This document shows, piece after piece, positions 1-54,174 of a DNA stretch of 64,000 bases; the first letter of the stretch is position 1; each line of letters begins with the position of its first letter. A program made the translations under genes and the position numbers. Below the pieces are notes generated by a model. The model did no database searches. It was not told the DNA's origin and worked only from the letters and a program-made list of their open reading frames with translations. The DNA comes from a bacterium. GTDB lineage: Bacteria; Electryoneota; RPQS01. The DNA lies in assembly GCA_036504735.1 (NCBI GenBank), contig DASXUQ010000008.1:186001-250000 (forward strand), given 5' to 3'.

Positions 1-886
1 GCCTGAGACCGCGTTCGCTGACGATGCCTTCCTCAATTTCCAGTGCCCAGAACATCTCCCGCAGCAGAATCGCTCCCGCCAGAATAATTCGCCCGCGTCC
101 CACCGGCATGCCGGGCATCATCTGCAACTCCTCGGCGGGCCGTCCCAGAAAATGCGCAATCAGCCGGTCCACGTCTTCCACGGTGATCAGGCTGCCGCCC
201 ACCCGCGCCGGGTCATAATGCCGGTAGCCGGATTTGAGCATCGCCAATGTAACCACTGTGCCGCCTACCAGAATCCACGGCACCTTCCTGCCGCGCAGAT
301 TGGCCACCAGATGGGTCAACCTGCCGCGCAGCGACGACACCAGTTCGGAAACTTCGTCTTCCTCGGGAGGATCATTCACAAAAAACTGATTGGTGAGCAC
401 CGATGATCCGACGTCTACGCTGTAACTCTGTCCGGGATTGTAGCCGAGCCCTTCCACAATTTCCGTCGAACCGCCGCCCAAGTCCATCACGCACACCCGC
501 TCGGTAGGATAGATCTCACGGTTGGAAATCGCGCCCAGATAAGTCAGTGCCGCCTCTTCCCGGCCGCTGATAATCTCCAGCGGCAGCCCCACCACGTCCT
601 TCACCGCCTGCTGAAAATCCGCGCGGTTGTTCGCATGCCGCACGGCGGCGGTCGCGCCGATCACAAAATCTTCCGCGCCCATCCGCCGGTAATCGCGCAC
701 GATTTCCGCCAGCAGATCCACATTCAGCGCCATCACGTCCGGCGAAAACTCCGGCCCCTGCCGCAGCGCGTCCCCCAGGTGGTTCACGGTAATCTGATCC
801 TGCAGCACCTGCAGTTCGCCGTTCGATCCTTCCGCCAGCAAGGCCAGCGTGGTGTTGGTGCCAATGTCAATCGCTCCGGCAATCAT
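1..886 (-). CDS. Ppx/GppA-family exopolyphosphatase / pppGpp phosphatase (3' end outside window)
   Basis: The reverse strand is open from an ATG at 886 to the window edge (295 codons, no stop). The translation starts MIAGAIDIGTNTTLALLAE, the phosphate-1 motif of the ASKHA-fold Ppx/GppA family, and later shows ATAAVRHANN and VCVMDLGGGSTEIVEG, the second phosphate-binding loop. Family members release phosphate from polyphosphate or convert pppGpp to ppGpp in the cytoplasm; the sequence does not separate the two. The start overlaps the stop of the upstream glutaminyl cyclase gene by four bases (ATGA), so the two are probably translationally coupled in one operon with sprA. About 300 residues are visible, which would cover a short one-domain Ppx/GppA; the C-terminus is missing. 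Confidence 0.9.
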   Translation of the reverse strand, partial: MIAGAIDIGTNTTLALLAEGSNGELQVLQDQITVNHLGDALRQGPEFSPDVMALNVDLLAEIVRDYRRMGAEDFVIGATAAVRHANNRADFQQAVKDVVGLPLEIISGREEAALTYLGAISNREIYPTERVCVMDLGGGSTEIVEGLGYNPGQSYSVDVGSSVLTNQFFVNDPPEEDEVSELVSSLRGRLTHLVANLRGRKVPWILVGGTVVTLAMLKSGYRHYDPARVGGSLITVEDVDRLIAHFLGRPAEELQMMPGMPVGRGRIILAGAILLREMFWALEIEEGIVSERGLR

Positions 887-1785
887 GGCTGAACCTCTTC
901 GTGCGCCAGCATGTCCATCAGCGTCCGGCCCACCTGCCCGAGACTGTTCGCCGAGCAGTGCTCGGGAGTGTCATCGGTCGTGTGCCAGTAGGGATAGTTG
1001 AAATCAATCAGGTCCACGGCGGGTATCTTCTGTTCCATAAACGGGAGATGGTCGTCGATCACCGGAATGCCGTTCTCCCTCACAAACGCCGCGGCATTCA
1101 CGCGCGCGGCGGCACTCCAGATCTTGTCCACCACCGGCTTGGCGTACTTGGCCGAATACTCTTCTTGCGGGATGCGCACGTCGCGCTGGCCGATCATGTC
1201 CAGAAGTATCACGAAGCGCGGCGGAGGATCGAGCAGGTTCTTCACGTAATGCTTCGACCCGATCAAATAGTCCGCGATCACCTCTTCCCGTCCGTAGTCT
1301 TCGCCGTCGAAGAACACAATGTCCAGCCCCACCGGAGCCGGATTGGCTTTCAGTTGCCGCGCCACTTCCAGCAGCACCGCCACGCCGGACGCGCCGTCAT
1401 CGGCTCCCGGAATCGGCGTCTTGCGCTTGGCCGGATCCGGATCACGGTCGGCAAAGGGCCGCGTGTCCCAGTGCGCGCACAGCAGCACCCGGTCCCGCTG
1501 GTTGGGCCGGATCCGCCCGATGATATTCGTCAGGCTGAGGGTCTCTTTCGTGTCTTCGCTCTTGTACTGGAACGGCTGTGTGATCACCGTATCCGTCCAG
1601 AAGGCCAGTTCGCGCTTCAGAAAATCCAGACACTGCGCATGGCCGGGCGAGCCGGGATTGCGCGGCCCGAAGGCGCACTGCGCCTCAAGATAATAGAAGG
1701 CGTTGTCCTGATCGAAGGGCGCTGCCGCCCAGGCTGCGCCGCTTAACAACAGGACCAACACGGCGAGTTTAACCGCGGATGGCAA
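883..1785 (-). CDS. Glutaminyl-peptide cyclotransferase-like M28 zinc enzyme, exported
   Basis: 300 residues with a signal peptide (hydrophobic core about residues 5-20, cleavage near AWA-A). The M28 zinc-enzyme motifs occur in order: CAHWDTRP, GADDGASG (zinc Asp), FFDGEDYG (catalytic Glu and zinc ligand), LLDMIG, IDDHLPF and YWHTTDD (zinc His). The pair DDHLPF plus WHTTDD is characteristic of glutaminyl cyclases rather than aminopeptidases of this fold. Such enzymes cyclise an N-terminal Gln to pyroglutamate, here presumably in the periplasm. The start lies inside the 3' end of sprA (17-base overlap) and the stop overlaps the next gene by four bases. Many exported proteins of this window have Gln as the predicted first mature residue, which gives a plausible substrate set. 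An aminopeptidase role cannot be ruled out from sequence alone. Confidence 0.85.
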   Translation of the reverse strand: MPSAVKLAVLVLLLSGAAWAAAPFDQDNAFYYLEAQCAFGPRNPGSPGHAQCLDFLKRELAFWTDTVITQPFQYKSEDTKETLSLTNIIGRIRPNQRDRVLLCAHWDTRPFADRDPDPAKRKTPIPGADDGASGVAVLLEVARQLKANPAPVGLDIVFFDGEDYGREEVIADYLIGSKHYVKNLLDPPPRFVILLDMIGQRDVRIPQEEYSAKYAKPVVDKIWSAAARVNAAAFVRENGIPVIDDHLPFMEQKIPAVDLIDFNYPYWHTTDDTPEHCSANSLGQVGRTLMDMLAHEEVQP

Positions 1786-4700
1786 TGTTCACCTGAATTC
1801 CGAATTCGAAAACCCGGGACTTGCTTTGATTAATGTCGTTCTTTGTCTGCTGGAACTGGACATAGCCCTGTCCCTGCACCGTATTCGAGAAACTGTAGGT
1901 CATGCGCGGCTGCACCGACCAGGAAGACGTCGCCGCACGCGGCGCATAGTCATCGCTGCCCGTCTGCGTGGCATCCTGCGTCTGTTTGCCGTAATCCACA
2001 TTCAGCGAGAAGGTCGTCTGGTTCTGAAGGCGGACCGAGCGCATGATCAGCAACGGCAGTTTGAATCCCGTATGGATCGTGTAACTGACGCTGGCCGTCA
2101 GGCGATTATCCGTGCTGCGCGACCGGGTGGACTGCAAAAGCTGATTCGAGTAGGTGCTGGAGGAGGTGAAGCCAATCTGGGAATCGATATCACCCTTCCA
2201 TGACACGTTAGCCCGCAGCAGCGGGTTCCAGTTGCGCGTGTATTCGCGCGACTGAACGTTTGACCGGGAGTTCGCCCATCCTTCCCGCATCTTATTCGAC
2301 AGGGCGCTGGACAGGCTGATCGTCTTGGTCACCGAACTCAGGAATTTGATCCGCTCCAGTCCCGACCAGTCCACGCTCACGTCCATAAACGGGAACGCGG
2401 TGGTCTTCTTGGTGCCCAGCCAGAAGGTCGTCTGCTCCACCGACCCGAGCCGGCTCTGGCTCGAGTTCTCGGATGCGTCGTGGCTGTAGTTGAAGGCCAC
2501 GCGGATATCCTGCGTCAGCCGCAGGCCGCTGCGGGCGGTGATCTTCTCGTCGCTGCGCAGCGTGGGAATGCTGCCGTAGCCGGAATCGACGCGCAGCCCC
2601 GGATTCTGCGTAAACCCGAACTGGTAGGGCAGCGACGCCTGTCCGATGGTGGCGGACTGGCTGTGCCCGGCGGTATTGTCGTAGCTTAAGGCAATCGGAT
2701 CGATAAAGGTCAGAGCCTTCTTGATGGGCCGGAAGACCTGCCCCAGCAGTTGCAGCGGAGACGATCCACCTTCCCGGTGGGATTTGGTCGTATCGCTGCG
2801 GGCTCGCGACGTGTCGCTCCTCGCCCGTGTCGTATCGCCCGCCGCCGTGCTGCCCAGGGGGCCGCGATGGGATGGACCGCCACGCAACGAATCGCCCGGC
2901 ATGGGCAGGCCGCGCGGCGGCATACCGTCCCGTGGGGAACCGAGGGAATCTCCCTGCATCATGTCGCGCGGATTGCCCGGCCCGCGTCCGCGATCCGGTT
3001 CCTCCGGACGGTCTGAACCACGCTCCCGGTCTCGATCCCGTCCCCGCCGCCCGCGTCCGCCGCTGCCGCCACTTTCACCGAAAATATTGCGGAAGTCGAG
3101 CTGGACGTCCGTGCCGAAGTTTCGCTGGTTGGAAACACTCTGGGCGTTCGTTTGGGAGAAGTTGCGGTTGGCCCAGGCATAGGTGGTCGTATAATTGACC
3201 GTCGGTTTGAACCACGGCAGAAACTCCGGACTGTAGGTGTTGGTCAGGTTCTGCGTAACGTCTGTGGTTTGCCCCCAGTTCCACGCCACGAGCTTTGCCC
3301 AGTCGCCGGTCAGCAATTGTCCTTTGTGGCTTCGCGTGTAATCGATGGTGATCGGGTCGAACGGCGCCAGACCGGTATTCAAACTGCGCGTCGTCAGGAA
3401 CTGCCGCGATCCGGTGGTCACTCCAGCCCTTGTAAACTGGTTCTGCACCACCTTGGAGGCCTGCGCATTCACCGTCAGCTTGGTCGGCTTGAAATAGAAA
3501 CGCATATCCGCCACTTTGGCCAGCAGCGGCAGCCGCTTCGCCCACCACAACGGAGGAACGCCGCGTCCTTTCGAGGTCGGGAAACTGTACGCCACCTGCG
3601 CCGCGCTCTGCTCGGAGTTGTTCCGTGCATTGGCCGGATCGCTGCGCTTGTCAAGCGTGTAATCCCACTGGGCCGTGAACTTTTCCAGGGTCCAGTTGAT
3701 CAGTTTAACCTTGGAATTCCCGCCTTTGGAAAACCGCAGTCCATAGGAAAAAGACTTGGACTTGGTTTTGATGCTGTCCGGAGCCGTGGACGGTATGATC
3801 CGGGTATCCGTTCCCGGAATAATTCTCGGGCTCTGGTTCGTCTCGTTATAAGAAAGATGCAGCGGCAACTGGTAACCGAAACGGTCCAGCCATACCTTCT
3901 GCAAATTGACCGTGGCGTTGCCCGAGAGTGCGTCCGTGCTGGCATTCGCGCCGACACGGGTGTTCACATTGTGGAAATCCGCGTCCGTGTTGCGGTAGCC
4001 GCCCGAAAGCTGCACGAAGTCGGCCAGGTTCAGCGACGTGCTGACATCCATTGCCGTGCCCGGATCCTTGTAAATGTCGGACACGCGCAGTTCATCCACC
4101 CAGATTTCCTTGTTCTCCACATGCTCAGTGGTGTTCTTGTTGAGGATGCGCACACCGAGCGCAATGAATCCCACCTGTGACATCGTCGGGTTGCCGCTGA
4201 TCACCAGACTATCGCCCCGCCAGGGCGTCGTCGTCCGTTCCGCGGCAAACCGCCCGTTGATCGTCAGAGCGCGATGATTGGTATCCTGCGCCGCCACCGC
4301 CGCCGCCCGCAAAGAGTTCAGGTTCGACAACTCATTCATCGCGATGTCAATAACATTCTGGGAATGCCATCCCGGATGCACCGTCTCCACGATGTCATAA
4401 AAGTTGTTCATGTCGCCGTAGGTGCGTCCGAAGCGCAGGATGAGTTCCAGCTTATTGTCTTCGAAGTTCGACGCCCCCAGCGTGTCGCCGCCGTGCACGA
4501 ACATCTTGAGGCGCTTGTACTCCGTCATGTTCATCGGCTGGTACAGGTTCTTCGATACAAAGAACTCCGAGGGAATGCGGTTCGTGGAGTCGGGACCGCT
4601 CAGGCGTTTCAGTTCATTCACCTTCAGCACCAGAGATTGCTCCCGCTGCCGCAAGTTGGTGATCGGATCAATCTCGCCCTCCACGCCCGGAGGGCTCACA

Positions 4701-7700
4701 TAGCCCGGATTCTCATGCGTGTTGATCACCGCGGTGGAGACATATTCGGTCGAGTCATTGCTCAAAGACGTCGCCGGCAGCCACTCGTTGGACACGATAT
4801 CCATCTGCACCGTTTCGATCCGCGTGGGAGTCGCGGTCTCGTGAATACCCGTCACATAGATCCGCGCCCAGCGCACATTGTCTAGCCGTGGATTGCCATG
4901 GGCCGTCCGGACTTCTTCATGCTGCTTATCCGGGCTGATCGGAATCCGGAGCAAGCGCCAGCGGTTGCGGGGGTTGCGGCCCACGGTGTATTTGTTGAGA
5001 AACTCCGGGTCAGTCAGCTTGAACGTGTAGGAGAAATAATTGTCCTGCGTGTCCAGCGTCTGATTGTTGTTCAGATCTTCCGTGTCCGGATAGCCGCCGC
5101 CTTCATCGTTCCGGTTGCGCTCCGTGCCGTTGATGTGTGAAAAATCCGAACTGTTCGCCGAATACTGCCAGTCATCCCAGGAGGGCACCGGCGGATGATC
5201 ATGGCCGTTCCAGTAGGCCGAATCCTGCGGATCGGTGCCGAACTTGCCATCCAGGCCCGCATCTTCTTCCGGAGTCAACACCCCGTTGCCCGAGGATGAC
5301 CGCGGATTCGTTTGCACCACGCCCGGCAGCGGCCTGTCCTCGGTATCGAGGGTATCATTCGGCAGCGCGTCTTCGGAAAGCTGCCCCAGGTCCACTACCA
5401 GCCGCGCGTCAGGATCTCGCTCCGCATTGAGGTTATTCGGCATATTGATCCAGAACTCGAGGTACTGCGCCCGCGTCTCATCGGCGTAACCTTCTCCGAG
5501 GTACCGCATCACGCCGCCCCAACTCGAATCGGCAGGACCGCCAATGGTATCCGGCGTGAATTCGAAGATCAACGACTGCAGCGTGTTGGCCACCTGCGAG
5601 TTTACTTCCCGGTCCGGGAACACTTCCTTGACCGGCACCTGGTCGCGCGTGTTCGGGTTATACCAGCGCAAGCGTCCGCGGCGGTGGTCAATTTCCCGGA
5701 CCGGAACACCGTTCGGCGACGGATTCGTCGGGATCGAGGAGATCGACCACGTGCGGCGGCTCATTCCCAGCGGCGTGGCGCGCCGCGAGCCTTCGAAGTC
5801 GTCCACGTACGCCAGACCGTTGAAATCTCCCGTGCGCGAGTTCGACAACGAATTCGGATTCGGCACCACCCGCGCGATTTCCGCGTCAATCGTCATGTCC
5901 GAAGGCGCGTCCGTGCGGATCAGCGGCAAGGCGTCAATCGCCCGCGTCAAAAACTCCGGCTTGAACTTCAAACTGGTGTTCGCATCCCACAACGTGTTGC
6001 GGATCGGCTCCATGCCGATACGTACGCGCTTGTCCAGCGTCGACTGGTTCAAATACAGCAGCATGCCGCCGATGTACGAATCCTGCCACAAGGCGTACTC
6101 GGCGCGCGCTCCGAGTAGCGTCGTTTTATCCAGCGAGGAGGTCTGGCCGGACTCATAGGTAATATCGAGATTCGCCCCCGGTGCCTTGGCCGCATCGTTC
6201 AAAATCCGCAGTTCGCCCGAAGAATAGTCCACCGTATAGTCGATGCCACGGGTCAACTTCTGCCCGTTCAGCATCACCTCTTCGGAATTCTCCAGCACCA
6301 GCACACCCAGCGAATACACCGACGAAGACCCCTTGTACTCGGCGCGGAACGTCCACTTGTCCGCATACTGGCCGGCCGAGGACAGCAGCCCCTTATAAAG
6401 GTAAGGCGCGGTGAAGGTGTGCGAGGTATCCTGCAACGCCGTCTCCATCGTGTCCAGCGGCCAGACCACAAGGTCGCCCCCGAGCGGATTCGCCGTCGTT
6501 GCCTTGTAGAATCCCGACGGCTTGAACGGCGTCAAATCCAGAAAATGCAGTTCGCCAAATTCGTAATTGATCAGTGCCGGAAACGCGTCCACCTGACCAT
6601 CCGGAGTCTGGCTTCCGCCCGGACCCTGACGGTCGAAATCGAAGAACGTCAGCCACGTCTGACCCGTAAACCCCGGAACCTGCGGGCCCGTCTCTTCCGT
6701 GCGTCCCGCGGCCGCCTTGCGGATAATTTCCAGTTTGAAATTATTGCGGTCGATGCTCGATGCGCCCAGCGGATAGATATTTCTCAGCATCAGTGTCCAC
6801 GTGGAATCGTCCGGCAGAGGATTGGCGGGCCGCAGTAGCACCAGCTTAATCAGCCCTTCGCCGTTTCCCGTATACAGGGTGCCGAAGGAGGTGGTGTCGA
6901 TCCCGTTGCCGCCCACCAGCCGGAAGGCGCAGCCCAGCGCCAGCCCCGCCGGCAGTGCCGAACGCAGCCGAACCCGTCCCAACTGCAAATCGACGTCGTA
7001 GTCGACGCCTTTGGAGAGCACCCGCCACTTCGTATACCAGTGGTTGTTATCCGACGGGTAGGTTGCGCTGTCCGGCAGAGAAAGGTCCTGGATGTACTGT
7101 ATGGCCGCCGCCCGCCCGTCGCGTGCGCCGTTGACCGACTGCCCCTGTGTCACCTGCGCCCACACCTGAATGTCGTAGAGCTGCTCATTGGGCGGCGCCG
7201 CGATGTGGTCCATGTTGTAGTAATGGCGGTAGTACTCGAGGAAGTTCGGCACGGCTCCCCGGCTGCCCGCGATGGACGTGTTAGTCACCATGAAATACTG
7301 ATCGTGCAGGATCTCTTTTTCATGGATCTCGCGCCGCGTCGACGCCGAATTGCCCGAGGACAGCTTATTCTTCTGCCCGCGCTCCAGCGAGGCAATGCCC
7401 GTCAAACTCAGCGGCCCGGCCTTAAGCTGGGTCTTTAAGCCGAACAGACCGGTATTCTTGCCCGAAAACGTCGCCAGCTTGGTCCCGAGGTTCAGCGCCA
7501 CGTTTCCCGCTTCGATCTTCTGGATAATCTCATCTTCGTCGCCGGTGTAGGTCAGCTTCAGGGAGTTCTCGAAGTCGAACATGCGCTCCGAGTCCTGGTC
7601 CACCTTCACCTCCACCTTCTGCCCCACCTTGCCGGTAATGGTGAACTGCTGCACCATGTCGATCCGGAAGGCGGTGTTGGTGTTCTGCTGGTTGACCGCC

Positions 7701-8269
7701 TGAATTTCGTCGAACTTCTGCCGCCGCAAACTCCCGTTGATCGAAATATTGCCCTGCACCCGCACGCCGACGTTGTCGCCGCCGAACAGCCGCCGGAAGG
7801 TCTTGGACTTGATCCGGTACGGCAGGTCGATGGCGATGCCTTCCCCGCCGCCCGTGGTGCTGGAGGCCTTGTAACTCTTGTCCGTCAATTCCCGCCACGA
7901 CCGCTGCACGTCCCAGCGCATTCGCTGCTCCTCGTACGTCTGGTAGGACAGAATCGTCGGCGGAGCCAGATGCGTCTCTTTCATCTTCAGCGTGACGGTG
8001 GCCTGAGAATAGGTCGTGTCGAAACTCACGCCCGGATCCCGCGCTCCCGTGCCGATGTCTAAGATGGCCCGATGCCCAAACGTCGTGTCGGCAATGCCGT
8101 GGGCGTAAGGCTGCGTGAGGTAATTACTGCCGGATGGGCTGCTGAGTAGTGAAACGCGAAAACCCACACCGGCGCGAGCCGATGTGGTCCATGCCGCGAG
8201 GCAGACCAACAGAAGTAATAACGTGAAAGGAGTAGGGCGGTAGGACCGCACGTTCCGGGATTCGGACAT
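1769..8269 (-). CDS. sprA: T9SS outer-membrane translocon SprA (Sov)
   Basis: About 2,166 residues, in the size range of SprA/Sov, the very large beta-barrel through which type IX secretion cargo crosses the outer membrane. Recognisable stretches are the N-terminal region with GKVGQKVEVKVDQDSE and TYTGDEDEIIQKIEAGNV, the conserved YVDDFEGSR segment, and a long C-terminal half rich in alternating beta-strand sequence. I place the start at MSESRNVRSYRPTPF, which is followed by a good signal peptide ending ARA-G; the frame is open for 82 more codons upstream, but that part lacks protein character. Residues about 1730-1841 form a low-complexity Arg/Gly/Asp/Ser/Pro-rich insert. The gene is the first of a minus-strand unit with the glutaminyl cyclase and Ppx/GppA. 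No other T9SS component (PorK, L, M, N, V or U) is in the window. Confidence 0.93.
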   Translation of the reverse strand: MSESRNVRSYRPTPFTLLLLLVCLAAWTTSARAGVGFRVSLLSSPSGSNYLTQPYAHGIADTTFGHRAILDIGTGARDPGVSFDTTYSQATVTLKMKETHLAPPTILSYQTYEEQRMRWDVQRSWRELTDKSYKASSTTGGGEGIAIDLPYRIKSKTFRRLFGGDNVGVRVQGNISINGSLRRQKFDEIQAVNQQNTNTAFRIDMVQQFTITGKVGQKVEVKVDQDSERMFDFENSLKLTYTGDEDEIIQKIEAGNVALNLGTKLATFSGKNTGLFGLKTQLKAGPLSLTGIASLERGQKNKLSSGNSASTRREIHEKEILHDQYFMVTNTSIAGSRGAVPNFLEYYRHYYNMDHIAAPPNEQLYDIQVWAQVTQGQSVNGARDGRAAAIQYIQDLSLPDSATYPSDNNHWYTKWRVLSKGVDYDVDLQLGRVRLRSALPAGLALGCAFRLVGGNGIDTTSFGTLYTGNGEGLIKLVLLRPANPLPDDSTWTLMLRNIYPLGASSIDRNNFKLEIIRKAAAGRTEETGPQVPGFTGQTWLTFFDFDRQGPGGSQTPDGQVDAFPALINYEFGELHFLDLTPFKPSGFYKATTANPLGGDLVVWPLDTMETALQDTSHTFTAPYLYKGLLSSAGQYADKWTFRAEYKGSSSVYSLGVLVLENSEEVMLNGQKLTRGIDYTVDYSSGELRILNDAAKAPGANLDITYESGQTSSLDKTTLLGARAEYALWQDSYIGGMLLYLNQSTLDKRVRIGMEPIRNTLWDANTSLKFKPEFLTRAIDALPLIRTDAPSDMTIDAEIARVVPNPNSLSNSRTGDFNGLAYVDDFEGSRRATPLGMSRRTWSISSIPTNPSPNGVPVREIDHRRGRLRWYNPNTRDQVPVKEVFPDREVNSQVANTLQSLIFEFTPDTIGGPADSSWGGVMRYLGEGYADETRAQYLEFWINMPNNLNAERDPDARLVVDLGQLSEDALPNDTLDTEDRPLPGVVQTNPRSSSGNGVLTPEEDAGLDGKFGTDPQDSAYWNGHDHPPVPSWDDWQYSANSSDFSHINGTERNRNDEGGGYPDTEDLNNNQTLDTQDNYFSYTFKLTDPEFLNKYTVGRNPRNRWRLLRIPISPDKQHEEVRTAHGNPRLDNVRWARIYVTGIHETATPTRIETVQMDIVSNEWLPATSLSNDSTEYVSTAVINTHENPGYVSPPGVEGEIDPITNLRQREQSLVLKVNELKRLSGPDSTNRIPSEFFVSKNLYQPMNMTEYKRLKMFVHGGDTLGASNFEDNKLELILRFGRTYGDMNNFYDIVETVHPGWHSQNVIDIAMNELSNLNSLRAAAVAAQDTNHRALTINGRFAAERTTTPWRGDSLVISGNPTMSQVGFIALGVRILNKNTTEHVENKEIWVDELRVSDIYKDPGTAMDVSTSLNLADFVQLSGGYRNTDADFHNVNTRVGANASTDALSGNATVNLQKVWLDRFGYQLPLHLSYNETNQSPRIIPGTDTRIIPSTAPDSIKTKSKSFSYGLRFSKGGNSKVKLINWTLEKFTAQWDYTLDKRSDPANARNNSEQSAAQVAYSFPTSKGRGVPPLWWAKRLPLLAKVADMRFYFKPTKLTVNAQASKVVQNQFTRAGVTTGSRQFLTTRSLNTGLAPFDPITIDYTRSHKGQLLTGDWAKLVAWNWGQTTDVTQNLTNTYSPEFLPWFKPTVNYTTTYAWANRNFSQTNAQSVSNQRNFGTDVQLDFRNIFGESGGSGGRGRRGRDRDRERGSDRPEEPDRGRGPGNPRDMMQGDSLGSPRDGMPPRGLPMPGDSLRGGPSHRGPLGSTAAGDTTRARSDTSRARSDTTKSHREGGSSPLQLLGQVFRPIKKALTFIDPIALSYDNTAGHSQSATIGQASLPYQFGFTQNPGLRVDSGYGSIPTLRSDEKITARSGLRLTQDIRVAFNYSHDASENSSQSRLGSVEQTTFWLGTKKTTAFPFMDVSVDWSGLERIKFLSSVTKTISLSSALSNKMREGWANSRSNVQSREYTRNWNPLLRANVSWKGDIDSQIGFTSSSTYSNQLLQSTRSRSTDNRLTASVSYTIHTGFKLPLLIMRSVRLQNQTTFSLNVDYGKQTQDATQTGSDDYAPRAATSSWSVQPRMTYSFSNTVQGQGYVQFQQTKNDINQSKSRVFEFGIQVNIAIRG

Positions 8270-8812: not shown

Positions 8813-8836
8813 CCTCATCGGTCTCCAAACGACCGC

Positions 8837-20410: not shown

Positions 20411-20519
20411 GGAAAGGCCTTTCCCTGCCTGCCTTCATTTCAAATTTTGGCTTTTGGATTTTGTTCTTTCTCTGTCTGCTCCAACTGCTTGTGACATGCT
20501 AACCATGGGAGAAGGACTC

Positions 20520-27163: not shown

Positions 27164-28558
27164 ATGAACACATTCAAGCGGTCGCTCCTCGCGCTTGCGC
27201 TCGTGCTGGTCTCCGTCTCATTTGCCCAGACGCCCGCGACTCCCAACGTCGAAGGCATGTGGCTCGGAACCCTTAGCGCGGGCAGCGCCAATTTACGCAT
27301 CGTAATCAAGATCTCACGCAAAGCCGACAACTCCCTTTCCGCCGTGCTGGACAGCCCCGATCAGGGAGCTAAGGGCATTCCCGCCGATGAGGTAATGCTC
27401 ACCGGTGACAGCTTGCACGTCGGCGTCAAAATGATTCTGGGTGGCTTTGACGGCAAGGTGCAGGATTCCACCATCACCGGGCATTGGAGCCAGCGCGGAC
27501 AATCATTCCCGCTGTCGCTGACCCGTGTTCAGGTGGAGCCCGAACTGGCCCGCCCGCAGATGCCGAAGAAGCCGTATCCCTATCTTGAAGAAGACGTCAG
27601 CTTCGTCAACGCCAAGGGCGGCGACACTCTGGCGGGAACCTTCACCCATCCTGAAGGCAGCGGGCCGTTCACTACGGCGTTGCTGATTTCCGGCTCAGGT
27701 CCGCAGGATCGCGACGAGAGCATTGCCGGGCACAAGCCGTTTCTGGTCATTGCCGATTATCTGACGCGGCAGGGCATCGCTGTTTTGCGCGTGGATGACC
27801 GCGGCGTGGGAAAATCCACCGGCAAGTTCGCGCAGGCCACCACCGAAGATTTTGCCACGGATGCCGAAGCCGCCATCGCCTATCTGAAGACCCGCCCCGA
27901 TGTCAACGGCAAGCGTATTGGCCTGATCGGACATAGCGAAGGTGCGCTGGTGGCGGACATGCTGGGTGCGCGTTCCAAAAGTGTCGCGTTCATCGTCACC
28001 ATTGCCGGGCCGGGGGTCACCGGGGAAGAGATCATCTTCCAGCAGGGAGACCTGATTTCCAAGGTGCAGGGAATGAACGGCGAGGAGATTGCGCGCAATC
28101 GCACCATGCGCCAGCAGATGTTCGACATTGTCCGCACCGAAAAGGACAGCAGTGCCGCTGCGACCCGGTTGCGCGGGCTGATGCATGCCGCCGCCGCACC
28201 TTCCGATTCCATTTCCGGCGCCATGATGGACATGCAGATCCGGCAACTGCTCTCGCCGTGGATGCGTTCGTTTTTGGCCTACGATCCGCGTCCTGACCTG
28301 AAGAAGATCACGTGCCCCCTGCTTGCCATCTTCGGCGAGAAAGACCTGCAAGTGCCGCCGCAGCCCAGCTCGTCCGAAGTTGCCAAGGCCCTCGAAAAGG
28401 GCAAGAGCCACTCCTATGAGATCAAGATTCTGCCCGGCCTTAACCATCTAATGCAGACCGCCGAGAGCGGTTCGCCGTCCGACTATGCCCGGATCGAAGA
28501 GACCTTTTCGCCCGAGGCCCTGAAGATCATCGGTGACTGGATCGGAAAACTGAAGTAG
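27164..28558 (+). CDS. Exported alpha/beta hydrolase (S33-like) with N-terminal beta domain
   Basis: 464 residues. Signal peptide with cleavage SFA-Q. Residues about 28-125 form a beta-rich domain (GMWLGTLSAGSANLRIVIKI and GHWSQRGQSFPLSLTR) seen in front of periplasmic hydrolases. From about residue 140 an alpha/beta-hydrolase fold follows: oxyanion region LLISGSGPQDRDES, IAVLRVDDRGVGKSTG, nucleophile elbow GLIGHSEGALVA (Ser), acid region LLAIFGEKDLQVPPQ and His near LPGLNHLMQ. An esterase or aminopeptidase acting in the periplasm is likely; the substrate is unknown. It is followed 26 bases later by a TPR gene on the same strand, possibly one transcript. Confidence 0.87.
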   Translation: MNTFKRSLLALALVLVSVSFAQTPATPNVEGMWLGTLSAGSANLRIVIKISRKADNSLSAVLDSPDQGAKGIPADEVMLTGDSLHVGVKMILGGFDGKVQDSTITGHWSQRGQSFPLSLTRVQVEPELARPQMPKKPYPYLEEDVSFVNAKGGDTLAGTFTHPEGSGPFTTALLISGSGPQDRDESIAGHKPFLVIADYLTRQGIAVLRVDDRGVGKSTGKFAQATTEDFATDAEAAIAYLKTRPDVNGKRIGLIGHSEGALVADMLGARSKSVAFIVTIAGPGVTGEEIIFQQGDLISKVQGMNGEEIARNRTMRQQMFDIVRTEKDSSAAATRLRGLMHAAAAPSDSISGAMMDMQIRQLLSPWMRSFLAYDPRPDLKKITCPLLAIFGEKDLQVPPQPSSSEVAKALEKGKSHSYEIKILPGLNHLMQTAESGSPSDYARIEETFSPEALKIIGDWIGKLK

Positions 28559-28584: not shown

Positions 28585-29319
28585 ATGCGGACGTTTTTCC
28601 GAAACAGTGTGATGATTGCGGCCTGCCTGATGGTGGCGGCGGCTATGGCTCAACCCACTTTGCCCCAGCATCCCAAGCGCGGCGATGCCGCGGCCAATTC
28701 CGAGATCATGCTGATCTATGCGGATTCCCTGCTGAAGGCGAATCCCAACGATATGACCGCGTGGAATATTCGTGTGTCCGGGCTGATGTTGCTGGGCCGC
28801 GATGCCGAGGCCCGGGCCGCGCTGCAAGAGGGGTTGAGAATCGACTCTTCCGATGCGGGACTGCAAAGGCTTCGCCAGCAGATTCAGGAACAGTCACAGC
28901 ATACCAACACGGTTCCCGACGCCAAGCCTCCCGAAACCAAAAACCAGTTGACGGTGGAGGGCACCTCTGCTTTTGCCATCGGCGACATGCAGGAGGCGCT
29001 GACCGCGCTCGATCAGGCGCTTGAAACCCGGCCCAAGGACGCCGGGCTGTGGCGGGCCAAGGGGGAGACGCTGCAGGAGATGGCGCGTCATGCCGAAGCG
29101 TTGACCGCCCTCGAGCAGGCGTTCGCGCTCGATTCCACACTGCCCGATCTGCACTACGATTTTGCCTGCGTGAATGCCGCGCTGGGCGACACCGCTCGCG
29201 CCTTGCGGGAACTGGAGAAGGCGCTGCGCGAAGATCCGCCGATTAAGGATCTGATCAAGGACAAAGACTGTTTTCAGTCACTGCGCAGCAATCCCCGTTT
29301 CAAGAAGCTTGTCAAATGA
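28585..29319 (+). CDS. Exported TPR protein, paralogue 1
   Basis: 244 residues. Signal peptide with cleavage AMA-Q. At least four tetratricopeptide units can be traced, for example NDMTAWNIRVSGLMLLGRDAEARAAL, AIGDMQEALTALDQALETRP and HAEALTALEQAFALDSTLPDL. The C-terminus ends in a characteristic block, DKDCFQSLRSNPRFKKLVK, shared with the proteins at 29425 and 54226. TPR arrays mediate protein contacts; here they would act in the periplasm or at the envelope. It lies 26 bases after the hydrolase and shortly before a second TPR gene, so the three may be co-expressed. Confidence 0.85.
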   Translation: MRTFFRNSVMIAACLMVAAAMAQPTLPQHPKRGDAAANSEIMLIYADSLLKANPNDMTAWNIRVSGLMLLGRDAEARAALQEGLRIDSSDAGLQRLRQQIQEQSQHTNTVPDAKPPETKNQLTVEGTSAFAIGDMQEALTALDQALETRPKDAGLWRAKGETLQEMARHAEALTALEQAFALDSTLPDLHYDFACVNAALGDTARALRELEKALREDPPIKDLIKDKDCFQSLRSNPRFKKLVK

Positions 29320-29424: not shown

Positions 29425-29991
29425 ATGAAGGTATTTGTGATTGCAATGGCGGTGTTGCTGCTGGCGGGGTTGTCCTTCGCTCAATCGTCGGATGATCCGG
29501 ACGTGCAGCATCTCGATTCGCTGAGTTCGGGACTGGACTCGCTGACGCTGCCCGACAATCCCGTGCTGCTGCATCTGGTGGATTCGCTCTCCGCCGCCGA
29601 GCCGCAGGATTACGGTTCGGTCATGCAGGTGGGCCGCAGTGATTTGAATGCGGGCCGCATCGAGGAGGCCCTTGCGGAGTTCGACAAGGCCGTGCAGATG
29701 ATGCCGCAGGAAGCCAAAGGCTGGAGCGAGAAGGGGAAATCGCTGACGATGCTGAACCGCCCGCAGGAGGCTCTGCCCGCGCTGAACAGGGCCATCGAAC
29801 TCGACCCGCGCCTGGCCGAAGCGCGTTTCACCCGCGCCGGCGCCCACAGCCTGATGAACCGCCCCGAAGCCGCGCTGCAGGATTTAGAGTCCGCCCTCGC
29901 CGCCGACCCGACGCTGAAGGATCTCGCCCGCACCAGCACGTTTTTCCGGTCGCTTTATGACAACCCGGAATTCAAACGATTGGTGAAATGA
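29425..29991 (+). CDS. Exported TPR protein, paralogue 2
   Basis: 188 residues. Signal peptide with cleavage SFA-Q. Two to three TPR units are visible (DLNAGRIEEALAEFDKAVQM, RPQEALPALNRAIELDPRLAE and RPEAALQDLESALAADPTLKD). The C-terminal block STFFRSLYDNPEFKRLVK matches the ends of the other two TPR paralogues. Its function is unknown, and it would act outside the cytoplasm. It is the last gene before a stretch of lower-GC genes that looks foreign. Confidence 0.83.
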   Translation: MKVFVIAMAVLLLAGLSFAQSSDDPDVQHLDSLSSGLDSLTLPDNPVLLHLVDSLSAAEPQDYGSVMQVGRSDLNAGRIEEALAEFDKAVQMMPQEAKGWSEKGKSLTMLNRPQEALPALNRAIELDPRLAEARFTRAGAHSLMNRPEAALQDLESALAADPTLKDLARTSTFFRSLYDNPEFKRLVK

Positions 29992-36791: not shown

Positions 36792-38831
36792 ATGAGACGG
36801 TTGGTAGGGCTATGGTTCATGCTGGCGGTGTCCGCCGCGCTGGTGCTGGGACAGGCGAAGGACAACGGCGAGCCGTATTATGATTTTGTAAAGGGCGAAG
36901 TGCTGGTGAAGTTCAAAACGCCGGCGGCGGTGAACGAATTGTGCGCGCAGCTTGGCGGATCGGTTATCGAATATCGCGCGGAGCTGGACTATTACCGCGT
37001 AGGCGTGACGACCGGCCAGGAAGCGGCGGCGGTGAAGAGTTTTCGCGCGCGGGGAGAAGTGGAGTGGGCCAACTTCAATTATATTGCCCGCGCCTTTTAC
37101 ACACCCGACGACACCTACTACCACTTCCAGTGGCACTATCCGGCGATCAACATGCCCGCGGCTTGGGATGTGACGCGTGGCTCTCCCGAGGTTGTCGTGG
37201 CGGTAGTGGATATGGGTTTCTATTTCAACCATCAGGACTTTGCCAATGTGACCACCGTGCACCCGCGCGATTTTGTGGACAACGACAACAATCCCGCGAC
37301 GACGGCGGAATATTCCCACGGCGCTCACGTGGCAGGGACGATCTTTGCCACCACCAATAACAATCTGGGCGTGGCGGGCATCGCGCCGCTCTGCACCTTT
37401 ATGCCCGTGCGGGCGCTGAATGACAGCGGCAGCGGCACGGCGGCCAACATCGCGGCGGGCATTGTCTGGGCCAGCGATAACGGCGCGGATGTGATCAACC
37501 TCTCCCTTGGCTATCCGGTGACGGGTGTGCCGCAGGATCCCGGTCCTCCGACCTCCACGGCCATTCAAACGGCGGCAGCCGCCGGCGTGGTGGTGTGCGC
37601 GGCGGCGGGAAATGACGGCGCGGGTTATGTGGGCTATCCGGCGGCGTACACGAGCTGCATCGCCGTGGGCGCTACGGGGTATGATGATAACATTGCACCC
37701 TATTCCAATCACGGCAGCGAACTGGACGTGGTGGCACCCGGCGGCAACACCGATCAGGATCTGAATCAGGACGGCCAGCCGGACGGAGTGCTCTCGGTTT
37801 CGCGGGACAGCAACGGCGACAACTACGTGTGGATGCAGGGAACGTCCATGGCGTCGCCGCATGTGGCTGGCGTGGCGGCATTGCTGCTCAGTCACGGTTT
37901 GACTCCCGCGCAAGTGCGGCCGGCGTTGCAGGAAACGGCGCTGGATCTGGGAGCGGCGGGGTGGGACAACCTGTACGGCTGGGGGCGGATCAATGCCCAG
38001 GCGGCGCTGGCATGGCATCAGGGCGGCGGCGGCGGAACAGTGCTGCTGAATGAAGGCTTCGAAGGCGGAGTGCCACCGCAGAACTGGCTGACCTACGAAG
38101 GCGGCGCGACGTCCTCCAACTGGTCGTCGCTGGAGGGCAATACGCACGCGTCCGGCGGCACCGAACCGCACGGCGGCAGCAATGCGGCTTATCACGATGA
38201 CGACCTCGCGTCGCCGGGAGACTCGGTGCGTGACTGGCTGATCTTCCCCGCGGTGGATATTCCGTCCACGGCGACCAGCGCGCAGGTGTCGTTCTATCAG
38301 CGCAATGCCTACGTCAATGCGCAGTATTACGGTTTGCACGCGCTGCTCTATTCCACGGATGATTCCACCTATGCGATTGCGCAGACGTTCGGCACGCCGC
38401 AGACGACATGGGCTCAGGAAACGGTGAACGTGATCTCCTTGCAGGGACGGCATGTCTGGTTTGCCTTCTATTATGTGGGCAACAACGGCAGCGAGTGGTA
38501 TGTGGATGATGTGACCGTGACGGTGAGCACACCCGGCGCGGCGGGCGAGCGCACGGCGGTGGTGAAGCTGCTGGCGCTGGACAGTCCCTATCCGAATCCC
38601 TTCAACAGCGTCGTGCAGATTCCGCTGGAGCTGAATCAAACCTCGCGCGTGGAACTCTCGGTTTACAATGAACTCGGGCAGCGCGTCACCACGTTGCTGC
38701 CATCCACGGCGCTGGCGGCAGGCAGCCACCGTTTCACCTGGAATGCGGCGGGTGTGGCCAGTGGTTCGTATTTTGTGCGGCTTGCCGCCCCGGATAATGT
38801 GCAGACCCGCAAGGTGCTGCTCATCAAGTAG
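36792..38831 (+). CDS. Exported subtilisin-like (S8) protease with T9SS sorting domain
   Basis: 679 residues; start supported by GAGGAGGAATCTG before ATG. Signal peptide with cleavage VLG-Q. Residues about 25-110 resemble an inhibitory propeptide (GEVLVKFKTPAAVNELCAQL). The catalytic triad is Asp in VAVVDMGFYFNHQDF, His in SHGAHVAGTI and Ser in GTSMASPHVAGVAALL. From about residue 415 a jelly-roll-like domain (NEGFEGGVPPQNW to WYVDDVTVTV) follows, as in adhesin-type modules. The C-terminus is a T9SS sorting domain (DSPYPNPFNSVVQIPLEL, ending TRKVLLIK). It should be a secreted or cell-surface endopeptidase. Monocistronic, followed by hairpin repeats. Confidence 0.93.
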   Translation: MRRLVGLWFMLAVSAALVLGQAKDNGEPYYDFVKGEVLVKFKTPAAVNELCAQLGGSVIEYRAELDYYRVGVTTGQEAAAVKSFRARGEVEWANFNYIARAFYTPDDTYYHFQWHYPAINMPAAWDVTRGSPEVVVAVVDMGFYFNHQDFANVTTVHPRDFVDNDNNPATTAEYSHGAHVAGTIFATTNNNLGVAGIAPLCTFMPVRALNDSGSGTAANIAAGIVWASDNGADVINLSLGYPVTGVPQDPGPPTSTAIQTAAAAGVVVCAAAGNDGAGYVGYPAAYTSCIAVGATGYDDNIAPYSNHGSELDVVAPGGNTDQDLNQDGQPDGVLSVSRDSNGDNYVWMQGTSMASPHVAGVAALLLSHGLTPAQVRPALQETALDLGAAGWDNLYGWGRINAQAALAWHQGGGGGTVLLNEGFEGGVPPQNWLTYEGGATSSNWSSLEGNTHASGGTEPHGGSNAAYHDDDLASPGDSVRDWLIFPAVDIPSTATSAQVSFYQRNAYVNAQYYGLHALLYSTDDSTYAIAQTFGTPQTTWAQETVNVISLQGRHVWFAFYYVGNNGSEWYVDDVTVTVSTPGAAGERTAVVKLLALDSPYPNPFNSVVQIPLELNQTSRVELSVYNELGQRVTTLLPSTALAAGSHRFTWNAAGVASGSYFVRLAAPDNVQTRKVLLIK

Positions 38832-50920: not shown

Positions 50921-52444
50921 ATGACTACACCGGTTACCTTGCCCCATATTAGCGCCGCCTCCGCCAAAACGGAGAGCCGCCTGGTGCTGATGCTTACCGC
51001 CATTGCCCTGCTGCTGCGCCTGCCGCAGCTCGGCGCCAGCTTTTACGGCGATGAGTATTTTTCGGTATTACGCGACAGCACCTACCTGCTAACGCCGACG
51101 GAGGACCGCTTCCGCCCGTTGTTCTTCTCATTGTTGTATCTGTGGCGGAGCATCGGCTTCAGCGGGGAAGTCGGCCTGCGGCTGTTGCCGCTGCTGTTCG
51201 GTGTCGCGCAGATTCCGGTGGCATTTTTCATCGGACGCCGGCTGGGCGGTGAAAAACTGGCGCGGGCTTTTGCCGTGCTGATGGCCGCATCGCCGATGCT
51301 CATCGAATTCTCGCAGGAACTGCGGATGTATTCGATGGTAGCGCTGCTGGCTCTCTTGCAAACGCTGTGCTATCTGCGGTTGCTGGAAAGGCCCGCCTTA
51401 GCGCGCTGGCTGATGTTTGTGCTGATCGGCCTTTCTGGAGTCTACACGCATCTGCATTACTGGATCTTCCTTGCGGGGTTTGCGCTGCTGTTTCTGATGG
51501 ATCGCCGCGCCTACCCGCTGTGGAAAGGGTGGGGGAGTCTGGCGGCAACGGCGGTGTTGTACCTGCCGAACATTCCGAACATCCAGCGGTTTGCGCAGGT
51601 GCGCGGCGGCGATTATGTGGTCCATCTGCCCAGCGCACTTCCCAAGCTGATCGCAGGCTTCACGCTGGGGTTCAATTACATCGAATTCGGCAGCGAAGCG
51701 GCGGGCAGGCCTGTGGGCTTTGGCGATGCCCTGCGGAATCTGCCCGTAATGCTGGTGGCGGCGGTTCCCGCGCTGTTGATTGCCTGGTCGCTGCTCAGAC
51801 TGCATTTCAAAAAACCTTTTCCGCGTACGCTGATCATCGGTCATGCGCTGTTTACCGTGCCGATTCTGCTGGCGTTTGCCGCCTGCGTGGTCACCAAGCA
51901 GTATTGGCTGCAACCCAAGTATGTGATCTTCTCCGCGCCGTTTGCCCTGCTGCTGATTGCCGAAGGCTATCTGGCGCTGACCTCCACCATGCTGCGCCGG
52001 ACCACGGCGGTGCTGGGAGTGGCGGTGTGCGTGGTGGCGCTGGCACATTTCTGGAATCCAAGGCATTATGGACGGCGGGAAGACTGGAGAGGTGCGGCCC
52101 AAACCCTGATGGAACGGGTGGGGCCGGAGGCACCGTTGCTCCTGCTGCCGGGGAATTATGCGCTGCTGAATTACTACAGCCCGGAAGCCGCGCATCGTGG
52201 CGAGATCGTGGACGTCGCGCGTGTGACGCAGCGTCCCGAGTCGCTGGCGGAAATGTACCACGGCAAGCAGATCTACTATCTGTGGAATGATATCCGGCGA
52301 ATCGAATCCGACCCGGACGATCTGGTGCTGCGCTCGCTTATTCAGCAGTTCGGCGCGCCGCGCGATGTCACGCAGTTCAATCCGCGGATGAAGTTATACC
52401 ACTGGACTTTGCCTTCTCCCAAAGCGGAGACGATTGCCCCATGA
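50921..52444 (+). CDS. Membrane glycosyltransferase, GT39/PMT-like (GT-C fold)
   Basis: 507 residues with about ten predicted helices. After the first helix comes ASFYGDEYFSVLRD, with the D-E pair expected in the first extracytoplasmic loop of GT-C enzymes. Later parts (EFSQELRMYSMVALLALLQ, YTHLHYWIFLAGFALLFLM) agree with the dolichyl-phosphate-mannose-like family. It would transfer sugars from a lipid carrier outside the inner membrane to a lipid or protein. The ATG at 50921 is preferred over TTG at 50915. The stop overlaps the start of the next gene by four bases. Confidence 0.83.
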   Translation: MTTPVTLPHISAASAKTESRLVLMLTAIALLLRLPQLGASFYGDEYFSVLRDSTYLLTPTEDRFRPLFFSLLYLWRSIGFSGEVGLRLLPLLFGVAQIPVAFFIGRRLGGEKLARAFAVLMAASPMLIEFSQELRMYSMVALLALLQTLCYLRLLERPALARWLMFVLIGLSGVYTHLHYWIFLAGFALLFLMDRRAYPLWKGWGSLAATAVLYLPNIPNIQRFAQVRGGDYVVHLPSALPKLIAGFTLGFNYIEFGSEAAGRPVGFGDALRNLPVMLVAAVPALLIAWSLLRLHFKKPFPRTLIIGHALFTVPILLAFAACVVTKQYWLQPKYVIFSAPFALLLIAEGYLALTSTMLRRTTAVLGVAVCVVALAHFWNPRHYGRREDWRGAAQTLMERVGPEAPLLLLPGNYALLNYYSPEAAHRGEIVDVARVTQRPESLAEMYHGKQIYYLWNDIRRIESDPDDLVLRSLIQQFGAPRDVTQFNPRMKLYHWTLPSPKAETIAP

Positions 52445-54174
52445 GACGCTGCTTTATCCTTCATCCTTCATCCTTCATCCTTCTCTTTGCGCTAACCGCG
52501 TTTGCGCAGATGCCGTATGATGTGGGGGATTGGACGTCGTACCGGGATTTCCGCTATGCGGTGTCGGTGGATGCGGGGTCGCATGAAGTGTTCGTCGCCA
52601 CGTCGGGCGGAATATTGGAATATCAACTGTTTCGCCAGCGGTGGTATGATCCGATTGTGGTCGGCTACGGGATGAGCGAAGCGATTCCATTGGATAATCC
52701 GCTGCTGCTGCTCTTCGATGAGCAGACCGGCTATGTATGGGTGGCCACCAAGACACAACTGTTGCAGTATGATGTCAATGCCGAACGCTGGACGGTGGCC
52801 GGGCGCAACCTGTGGGGCATCAATGACCGCGTGGTGAATATCGGCGTGGGGGCCAACGATCTTTATGTGGAGACCGTGCCGGGGCCGCTGTTCGCCAATT
52901 CCTTTCTGCCCGGCTCGGCCATCCCCACCAACAACTGGATGGGCTATGTCACGCGCTACAAGGGGTCTCGTACCTCGGGTGGGCTGATGCTGGATTTGGG
53001 CCAGACCTTGCCCGAAGGCACGCGCTGGCGCGGGTTGCGATCCAAGACTCCGCTGACCCCCGAACAACTGTCGAATAATCTTGGCTCGGGCGCGGCGAAC
53101 TTTCCTACGATGCTGCTGCCGTCGGGCTGGATCTGGAATTCCGACGGCACGGTACTGGATCCGTATCTGCGTTCGGCGCGGTTAACCGACTGGACCACGG
53201 ACAACTTCGGCCACCTGTGGATGACCTATTGGGGTGCGGGCGTGCTGCTGGACGATTTGCGCGGCGGACGTCCGGAGTTTTATCAGGCGGGACCTGCGGG
53301 AAACGACGTGCGCACGATTCTGGTGCAGAAGGACGACGTGTGGCTGGCCGGATTGAATGCGGGCGACCGCAAAGGCATCGCGCGCGCATCGACCAATTTG
53401 AAAGAGTGGCAGGTCTACGAGAGCCGCGACAACTCGCGCATCCGTTCGACCAACACGTTCGACATGGCGGCTTGGGACGGTGACATGTGGTTTGCCACCG
53501 ATGATGGCCTGCTGGCCTTCCGCGACAAGGACAAAAGCTGGCGGCTCTACGGCGTCAACCAACATTTGCAGAGCGATCAGGTTACCGCGCTGGCCGCAGC
53601 GGACAGCGAATTGTGGATCGGCACGGCAGATGGCTTGTCGGTGATGACGCGCGCCAGCCGCGACGTATTCCGTATCAACAATCGTGGGCCGCTGCTGACC
53701 AACATCACACGGCTTGCGCTGTGCGGCGACACGCTGTATGTGGGCACGGGTCTGGGGCTCTACAAGGGTTGCACCAAAGACCGCAGCTTTGCGTTTGCCG
53801 GCGTCGATCCGACCATTACCAGCGCGGCAGTAACCGATCTGTCGGTCATTCAAACGGAAGTCTGGATCGCCACCACGGGCGGCGTGCTGGCCTACGATCA
53901 ATCCACAGGCAAGTCGAAGAGTTACCAGTTGAGCTGGCTGGGAGGCAATCCGCCTACGGCCATTTATGCGGCGAGCAGCTTTGTGTGGGTGGGCACGCAG
54001 GCCGGACTCTATCGTTACCGGCGATCCAACAACGAATGGATTTCCTACACCACCGCCGACGGGCTGGTGGACAATCGCATACTGGCGCTGCGGGGCGATG
54101 GGGATGATTTATTGATCGGAACCGCCAACGGCCTGACGCGTTTCTACTGGAACCGCCCCAACCGGGCACGATGA
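52441..54174 (+). CDS. Exported beta-propeller protein with a repeat-derived signal peptide
   Basis: 577 residues. The signal peptide (RRCFILHPSSFILLFALTAF, cleavage AFA-Q) is encoded largely by TTCATCC heptamers. The body has 'ligand-binding sensor'/two-component-regulator propeller repeats: GGILEYQLFRQRW, GYVWVATKTQLLQYDV, DMWFATDDGLLAFRD, ELWIGTADGLSVM, LYVGTGLGLYKG, VWVGTQAGLYRY and DLLIGTANGLTRF. A double seven-blade-like propeller is likely. There is no kinase domain and no T9SS sorting domain. It is translationally coupled to the glycosyltransferase gene (ATGA). Confidence 0.85.
   Translation: MRRCFILHPSSFILLFALTAFAQMPYDVGDWTSYRDFRYAVSVDAGSHEVFVATSGGILEYQLFRQRWYDPIVVGYGMSEAIPLDNPLLLLFDEQTGYVWVATKTQLLQYDVNAERWTVAGRNLWGINDRVVNIGVGANDLYVETVPGPLFANSFLPGSAIPTNNWMGYVTRYKGSRTSGGLMLDLGQTLPEGTRWRGLRSKTPLTPEQLSNNLGSGAANFPTMLLPSGWIWNSDGTVLDPYLRSARLTDWTTDNFGHLWMTYWGAGVLLDDLRGGRPEFYQAGPAGNDVRTILVQKDDVWLAGLNAGDRKGIARASTNLKEWQVYESRDNSRIRSTNTFDMAAWDGDMWFATDDGLLAFRDKDKSWRLYGVNQHLQSDQVTALAAADSELWIGTADGLSVMTRASRDVFRINNRGPLLTNITRLALCGDTLYVGTGLGLYKGCTKDRSFAFAGVDPTITSAAVTDLSVIQTEVWIATTGGVLAYDQSTGKSKSYQLSWLGGNPPTAIYAASSFVWVGTQAGLYRYRRSNNEWISYTTADGLVDNRILALRGDGDDLLIGTANGLTRFYWNRPNRAR
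52453..52483. repeat. TTCATCC heptamer array encoding a signal-peptide core
   Basis: Three perfect TTCATCC units and flanking partial ones lie at codons 5-14 of the propeller gene. In this frame three heptamers encode FILHPSS. Confidence 0.85.

What the first reader, a model, noticed from the sequence alone, without database searches (positions are those of the whole stretch)
883..8269. Glutaminyl cyclase gene coupled to sprA, with 'Gln at +1' in most exported proteins
Seen: eight exported proteins have Gln right after a plausible signal-peptidase I site (genes at 27164, 28585, 29425, 36792, 52441, 54226, 61340, 62709; for example SFA-Q, AMA-Q, AWG-Q). The gene overlapping sprA has all glutaminyl cyclase motifs. 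Known: in Bacteroidota a bias for Gln at +1 followed by cyclisation to pyroglutamate has been described. Inference: the same N-terminal capping operates in this lineage, and is tied genetically to T9SS secretion. Exceptions are SprA, the cyclase itself, the beta-barrel protein, the DUF5916 protein, probably the DUF2141 protein and the two large tandem cargo proteins.
Basis: partly seen in the sequence, partly recalled or inferred. Interest (0 to 1): 0.75.

Follow-up and report, generated by a model that had tools for sequence, protein, structure and literature searches.

The report
Protein N-terminus capping enzyme beside sprA
This uncultured bacterium, a relative of Caldithrix rather than a Bacteroidota, carries a glutaminyl cyclase gene overlapping the gene of its type IX secretion channel, and about a third of its exported proteins start with the glutamine that such an enzyme caps, so a capping habit described for Bacteroidota probably reaches further and is linked in the genome to that secretion channel.

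Summary
Window 883-1785 (-) encodes a type II (animal-type, M28) glutaminyl cyclase (QC): the AlphaFold model (pLDDT 94.6) matches Bacteroidota QCs best, and the core zinc and catalytic residues are conserved in 109 relatives. It overlaps sprA by 17 nt and a Ppx/GppA gene by 4 nt. All eight named proteins have Gln after a plausible signal-peptidase site. With a detector blind to +1, Gln is at +1 in 23/66 signal peptides of an 11% sample of the genome (background 4%, p=3e-15), 11/19 in Prevotella and 0/16 in E. coli. So capping is probably real, but not of 'most' exported proteins.

New points: the genome belongs to the Caldithrix phylum, not Bacteroidota. sprA-QC adjacency recurs in 31 of 74 testable loci (Calditrichota, KSB1, Zixibacteria, Krumholzibacteriota, Latescibacterota) but in none of 10 Bacteroidota or Ignavibacteria loci. 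In 39 genomes of the phylum, M28 QC (27) and the unrelated plant-type QC (9) never co-occur. In five same-family genomes the plant-type gene adjoins lgt and/or tmk; in one of these, G001, sprA runs straight into ppx. This looks like non-homologous replacement inside one family. A functional tie to T9SS is not shown.

The parts
883..1785 (-). type II (M28) glutaminyl cyclase, 300 aa, TTG start, predicted Sec/SPI signal peptide AWA^AAPF, no lipobox
   Evidence: best PDB sequence hits are Bacteroidota QCs; AF2 model pLDDT 94.6; top 50 fold matches are QCs or Bacteroidota structures since re-assigned as QCs; active-site residues conserved
1769..8269 (-). sprA/sov, outer-membrane translocon of the type IX secretion system; ends 17 nt inside the QC gene
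   Evidence: TIGR04189, E=7e-231, 770 bits; start choice and overlap
2..886 (-). Ppx/GppA phosphatase, cut by the window edge; ATGA overlap with the QC stop
   Evidence: PF02541, 166 bits; overlap read
27164..28558 (+). exported alpha/beta hydrolase, SFA^QTPA
   Evidence: blind signal-peptide model, best site at Gln; Pfam
28585..29319 (+). exported TPR protein, AMA^QPTL
29425..29991 (+). exported TPR protein, SFA^QSSD
36792..38831 (+). subtilisin-like protease with T9SS type A sorting domain, VLG^QAKD (second-best site)
52441..54174 (+). exported protein with weak PorZ similarity, AFA^QMPY
   Evidence: PorZ score below the family cut-off
54226..55218 (+). exported TPR protein, AMA^QGTA
61340..62698 (+). 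T9SS type A cargo protein, AWG^QPPD
62709..64000 (+). T9SS type A cargo protein, cut by the window edge, AFA^QPPT
   Evidence: sorting domain at genome C8:249876-250106

Best explanation
The gene after sprA encodes an exported, single-zinc glutaminyl cyclase. Signal peptidase I cleaves many Sec-exported proteins at A-x-A|Q, and the periplasmic QC turns the new N-terminal Gln into pyroglutamate, blocking aminopeptidases. This is the Q-rule pathway described in Bacteroidota, here in the Caldithrix phylum, acting on roughly a third to two fifths of signal-peptidase-I substrates in general, T9SS cargo and non-cargo alike. Shown by computation: enzyme identity, intact active site, Gln excess in the genome sample, overlapping genes, recurrent sprA-QC adjacency. 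Inferred: catalytic activity, cyclisation in vivo, protection from aminopeptidases, translational coupling. The adjacency to sprA is read as an old operon that co-supplies an export-maturation enzyme, not as a part of the T9SS machine.
For: Sequence: T. forsythia QC E=3.5e-61, then other Bacteroidota QCs; animal QCs weaker; aminopeptidases weakest. Fold: ranks 1-50 are QCs or Bacteroidota entries re-assigned as QCs (PMC7948796). Active site (protein numbering): D130, E162, D196, D245, H268 invariant in 109 relatives, D163 in 108 (E once), W267 in 107, Y173 at the HsTrp207/PgTrp193 position (Y/W/F/M in relatives). Gln+1: 23/66, p=3e-15; Prevotella 11/19; E. coli 0/16, Ala commonest. QC-bearing loci pooled from many phyla: 30/83. 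Every one of the 9 phylum members with a strong plant-type QC lacks the M28 QC, and none of 39 has both, as expected if one cyclase is needed and two are redundant.
Against: Gln+1 is below the Bacteroidetes level (332 of 334 species above 48%, PMC5837995), though my detector also underestimates (58% in Prevotella). G014 (100% complete, sprA present) has neither QC yet 5/24 Gln+1 (p=0.005), so some Gln excess can exist without a known QC; the difference from G000 is not significant (p=0.30). The QC here has no lipobox, whereas PgQC is an inner-membrane lipoprotein. About a tenth of the genome was sampled, with a home-made signal-peptide model. No activity or mass-spectrometry data.
Confidence: 0.72

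Rival explanations
1. The QC serves the T9SS specifically: it caps cargo (or a T9SS part) before passage through SprA, which is why the two genes overlap and are co-translated.
For: sprA-QC in the same order and strand in 31 of 74 testable loci from several candidate phyla and in all same-family genomes with M28 QC; Gln at or near the best site in 16/25 sorting-domain proteins against 15/47 others, p=0.013.
Against: Best-site count is not different (10/25 against 14/47, p=0.44). QC without sprA in Armatimonadota; sprA without neighbouring QC in families f3 and f5 and no sprA beside QC in the Bacteroidota and Ignavibacteria loci. In PF05096 genomes the QC gene sits elsewhere, in several beside lgt and tmk. 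Bochtler 2018 argued against a role in T9SS targeting (PMC5837995).
Confidence: 0.15
2. The Gln excess is only a cleavage preference of this lineage's signal peptidase; the QC acts on something else.
For: G014 lacks both QC types but still has 5/24 Gln+1; an Armatimonadota genome with QC has only 5/30, with Ala commonest.
Against: Small samples; both values lie below G000 (23/66) though neither difference is significant (p=0.30 and 0.09); mutual exclusion of two unrelated QC families (0 of 39 genomes with both) points to a shared substrate pool that needs one cyclase.
Confidence: 0.1
3. The M28 protein is an ordinary aminopeptidase and the finding is a mis-annotation.
For: Pfam and NCBIfam match it to peptidase families, and three of its close PDB matches were deposited as peptidases.
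Against: Those three were re-assigned as QCs (PMC7948796); true aminopeptidases are the weakest PDB sequence hits; the WH motif and the zinc ligand Asp in place of Glu202 are the pattern of bacteroidal QCs.
Confidence: 0.03

Closest known systems
Bacteroidetes Q-rule (Bochtler et al. 2018, PMC5837995; Szczesniak et al. 2023, PMC10653852)
   Same: Gln at +1 of signal-peptidase-I substrates together with an exported animal-type QC; both animal- and plant-type QCs are used by different species.
   Different: Other phylum; lower Gln fraction (35-42%); QC not a lipoprotein; QC gene in an operon with sprA; replacement of the QC type seen inside one family. The 2018 paper already reports high values outside Bacteroidetes (Ignavibacterium album 77%, Chloroherpeton 55%).
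Type II bacterial QCs PgQC, TfQC, BtQC (PDB 6qql, 6qro, 7d1d)
   Same: 35-39% identity over the model, TM (query) 0.86-0.89, same zinc and catalytic residues.
   Different: Tyr at the Trp193 position, shorter insertion loop, no lipid anchor.
Plant-type QC, PF05096 (papaya, Xanthomonas)
   Same: Same reaction; carried by same-family relatives that lack the M28 QC.
   Different: Unrelated sequence family; absent from this genome.
Type IX secretion system
   Same: sprA and at least 150 sorting-domain proteins in this genome.
   Different: QC is not a known T9SS component.

Membership tests
Type II (animal-type) glutaminyl cyclase | alpha/beta zinc-hydrolase fold nearest to characterised QCs rather than aminopeptidases | tested here: met
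   fold search ranks 1-50 and PDB sequence ranking
Type II (animal-type) glutaminyl cyclase | single-zinc ligands D159/E202(D)/H330 and catalytic E201, D248, D305 | tested here: met
   D130, D163, H268, E162, D196, D245; invariant in 109 relatives apart from one D/E exchange
Type II (animal-type) glutaminyl cyclase | aromatic pocket residues (HsW207/PgW193, F325, W329) | tested here: inconclusive
   W267 present; Tyr at the other two positions by alignment, conservative but untested
Type II (animal-type) glutaminyl cyclase | catalyses N-terminal Gln to pGlu | not testable with these tools
   needs enzyme assay
Bacteroidetes Q-rule | Gln excess at +1 of SPI substrates | tested here: met
   23/66, p=3e-15
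Bacteroidetes Q-rule | Q-value at the Bacteroidetes level (332 of 334 species above 48%) | tested here: inconclusive
   35% best site, 40-42% by EM or near-best site, with a detector that gives 58% for Prevotella
Bacteroidetes Q-rule | QC usually a lipoprotein at the inner membrane | tested here: not met
   no lipobox in the N-terminus, SPI-type signal peptide
Bacteroidetes Q-rule | belongs to phylum Bacteroidetes | tested here: not met
   same phylum as Caldithrix and LCP-89 records by kinship table plus identical SprA coordinates
Bacteroidetes Q-rule | pyroglutamate at mature N-termini | not testable with these tools
   needs mass spectrometry
Type IX secretion system component | needed for, or confined to, T9SS cargo | tested here: inconclusive
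   adjacency met; cargo against non-cargo p=0.44 or 0.013 by two counts; QC present without sprA

The most novel reading that the evidence does not exclude
N-terminal pyroglutamate capping is an ancestral trait of the FCB superphylum in which the animal-type QC was an original member of the sprA operon, so that capping and T9SS were once functionally joined. The link was later broken by moving the QC away (Bacteroidota, Caldithrix family) or by swapping it for an unrelated plant-type QC placed in the lipoprotein-maturation operon (lgt-QC-tmk).
Probability: 0.3. Interest if true: 0.7.

Novelty: new member of a known kind. Interest (0 to 1): 0.48.

Why it matters
The 2023 Q-rule paper calls this capping exclusive to Bacteroidetes, and the 2018 paper argues that it is independent of T9SS despite co-occurrence. 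Here the enzyme gene overlaps the T9SS channel gene in another phylum, and the pairing recurs across candidate phyla, so the old question of a QC-T9SS link becomes testable by comparative genomics. The swap of two unrelated cyclases inside one family (M28 beside sprA, plant-type elsewhere and often beside lgt) suggests that some cyclase is kept under selection, and gives paired genomes in which to measure what the capping is for.

Tried and rejected
(2) A first hand-made signal-peptide rule misplaced many sites, e.g. ATA^FAQ; replaced by a trained n/h/c model blind to +1 and an EM variant. The score threshold and filters were changed; Gln+1 for this genome stayed at 32-41% throughout. (3) Ortholog-pair conservation of Gln+1: 62 of 499 pairs Gln/Gln, only slightly above expectation and with redundant pairs; not used. 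(4) Prediction that a genome without any QC lacks the Gln excess: not confirmed (G014 5/24). (5) Idea that the lgt-tmk gap of this genome holds a decayed plant-type QC: no similarity found; it holds a Y1 transposase gene with repeats. (6) G068, labelled Bacteroidota, was dropped as main positive control because its true group is uncertain; Prevotella used instead. (7) Kinship of genomes behind other loci is not told by the tool; the phylum was inferred by matching coordinates and E-values.
Full report
Observation. The gene at 883-1785 (-) starts with TTG inside the last 17 nt of sprA (stop TAA at 1769-1771) and its TGA overlaps the ATG of a Ppx/GppA gene by 4 nt. sprA is a strong TIGR04189 member with a signal peptide from ATG 8269. 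Three genes, sprA-QC-ppx, therefore look like one translationally coupled operon (inference from overlaps).

Enzyme. Phmmer against the PDB ranks T. forsythia, B. vulgatus, P. distasonis and B. thetaiotaomicron QCs first (E to 1e-61), then P. gingivalis QC, animal QCs, and last aminopeptidases. The AlphaFold model (pLDDT 94.6, pTM 0.91) has QCs, or Bacteroidota structures that PMC7948796 re-assigns as QCs, at all 50 listed fold-search ranks, TM up to 0.90 by query length. In an alignment of 109 relatives the zinc ligands D130, D163, H268 (D163 is E once) and catalytic E162, D196, D245 are otherwise invariant; W267 (Hs W329) is in 107. The position of HsTrp207/PgTrp193 is Tyr here and Y, W, F or M in relatives. 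Asp in place of HsGlu202 is the bacteroidal QC pattern (PMC5837995, PMC7948796). The protein has an SPI-type signal peptide and no lipobox.

Lineage. Same-phylum or same-order genomes G035, G017 and G012 have SprA matches at the same contig coordinates and E-values as genomes G074, G070 and G041, whose records are titled Caldithrix abyssi isolate TH-08apr19-15, LCP-89 bacterium B3_LCP and a MAG labelled Candidatus Puniceispirillum (the last label is evidently wrong). The phylum is therefore the one holding Caldithrix; Bacteroidota is excluded as home, by inference from these matches.

Gln at +1. A signal-peptide model with n, h and c regions, trained without sight of the +1 residue, was run on 464 kb of this genome including the window and on controls. 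Gln+1: this genome 23/66 (35%; 42% if near-best sites count; EM 40%), Prevotella 11/19 (58%), pooled QC-bearing loci 30/83, same-family M28 genome G007 13/50, same-family plant-QC genome G001 9/34, QC-less G014 5/24, Armatimonadota with QC but no sprA 5/30 (Ala commonest), E. coli 0/16 (Ala commonest). Background Gln in the following 30 residues is 3-6%. The excess here is beyond chance (p=3e-15) and significant against E. coli (p=0.004), but not against G014 (p=0.30). The window, where the excess was first seen, contributes about a seventh of the sequence and 7 of the Gln cases or near cases, so the rest of the sample carries the claim. Samples are small and the detector is home-made; the literature value for Bacteroidetes with animal-type QC averages 64% (PMC5837995).

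T9SS link. This genome has at least 150 sorting-domain proteins. Gln+1 is in 10/25 of those sampled against 14/47 other signal-peptide proteins (p=0.44); counting near-best sites 16/25 against 15/47 (p=0.013). So cargo may be somewhat enriched, but capping is not cargo-specific. sprA directly precedes QC in 31 of 74 loci with room to see it: Calditrichota 6 of 7, KSB1 6 of 8, Zixibacteria 6 of 7, Krumholzibacteriota 2 of 2, Latescibacterota 1 of 2, LCP-89, Tariuqbacter and unnamed bacteria; 0 of 3 Bacteroidota, 0 of 7 Ignavibacteria, 0 of 3 Armatimonadota, 0 of 5 Poribacteria (labels are those of the records). The 80 loci were picked by similarity to the window's QC, so the proportions are not a census. 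Within the phylum adjacency holds for the window's family, f2 (G011), f6 and f7 but not f3 or f5. Two Armatimonadota genomes have the QC and no sprA at all.

Replacement. Of 39 genomes in the phylum, 27 have the M28 QC, 9 a strong PF05096 plant-type QC, none both, 3 neither. In the window's family, G000, G004, G005, G007 and G010 have M28 beside sprA; G001, G002, G003, G006, G008 and G009 have PF05096. The G001 protein is closest to solved plant-type QCs (E=8e-48). The PF05096 gene lies between lgt and tmk in G001, G002, G006 and G009 (Lgt and thymidylate kinase recognised from their sequences; in G006 tmk follows after a gap, in G009 the gene order is read only); in G008 tmk is its neighbour but lgt was not found on that stretch; in G003 it is elsewhere. 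M28 genomes G004, G005 and G007, and G003, have lgt and tmk adjacent. In G001 sprA is followed directly by ppx; I did not examine the sprA-ppx junction of the other PF05096 genomes. In a SprA tree G000 falls inside the PF05096 clade (support 0.95-0.99), so either several losses of M28 or a stage with both enzymes must be assumed; it is a one-gene tree. In this genome the lgt-tmk gap (C2:80470-81255) holds an IS200-like Y1 transposase gene and repeats instead of a cyclase; whether it displaced a PF05096 gene is open.

Mechanism. Most likely SPI exposes Gln, the exported QC cyclises it, and the pGlu end resists aminopeptidases, as proposed for P. gingivalis, where capping was shown to stabilise proteins (PMC10653852). 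Enzyme identity and Gln excess are shown here by computation; activity and in vivo capping are inferred. The operon with sprA most simply co-supplies an export-maturation enzyme; a direct T9SS role is possible but unproven.

Novelty. The pathway is known; high Gln fractions outside Bacteroidetes were already noted for Ignavibacterium and Chloroherpeton (PMC5837995). Searches of the paper library found no report of QC beside sprA or of this replacement, which is not proof of absence.

Noticed in passing
whole genome G000: At least 150 T9SS type A sorting-domain proteins in a non-Bacteroidota genome, a very large cargo set (150 of 272 candidates were scored).
   Followed up: partly
G000 C2:80470-81255 (L161:470-1255): An IS200-like Y1 transposase gene (RAYT-like) flanked by repeated GCCGAGCCGGGTTGAGCC units sits between lgt and tmk, the place where relatives carry the plant-type QC.
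   Followed up: partly
window 8835-8852 and 23690-23707: Two copies of the same REP-like unit (0.00 expected by chance), one upstream of sprA and one between the two large cargo genes.
   Followed up: no
window 20406-23657 and 23759-26980: Tandem T9SS cargo genes of about 1,080 aa sharing the cleavage region CAHA^DPRQW, without Gln.
   Followed up: no
G014 and G019 (family f4): Nearly complete genomes with no QC of either type; G014 has a full sprA and G019 only weak sprA fragments. G014 keeps a mild Gln+1 excess: an unknown QC, spontaneous cyclisation, or no capping.
   Followed up: partly
L007 (DYHQ01000031.1): Record titled Candidatus Puniceispirillum appears to be a same-order relative of this genome (G041 equals G012 by coordinates), so the label is wrong.
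   Followed up: no
L017, L040, L085 and L055, L062, L064: Animal-type QC also in Armatimonadota and Poribacteria contigs, with no sprA beside it.
   Followed up: partly
window 52441-54174: Exported protein with weak similarity to the T9SS component PorZ (37.6 bits against a cut-off of 260).
   Followed up: no
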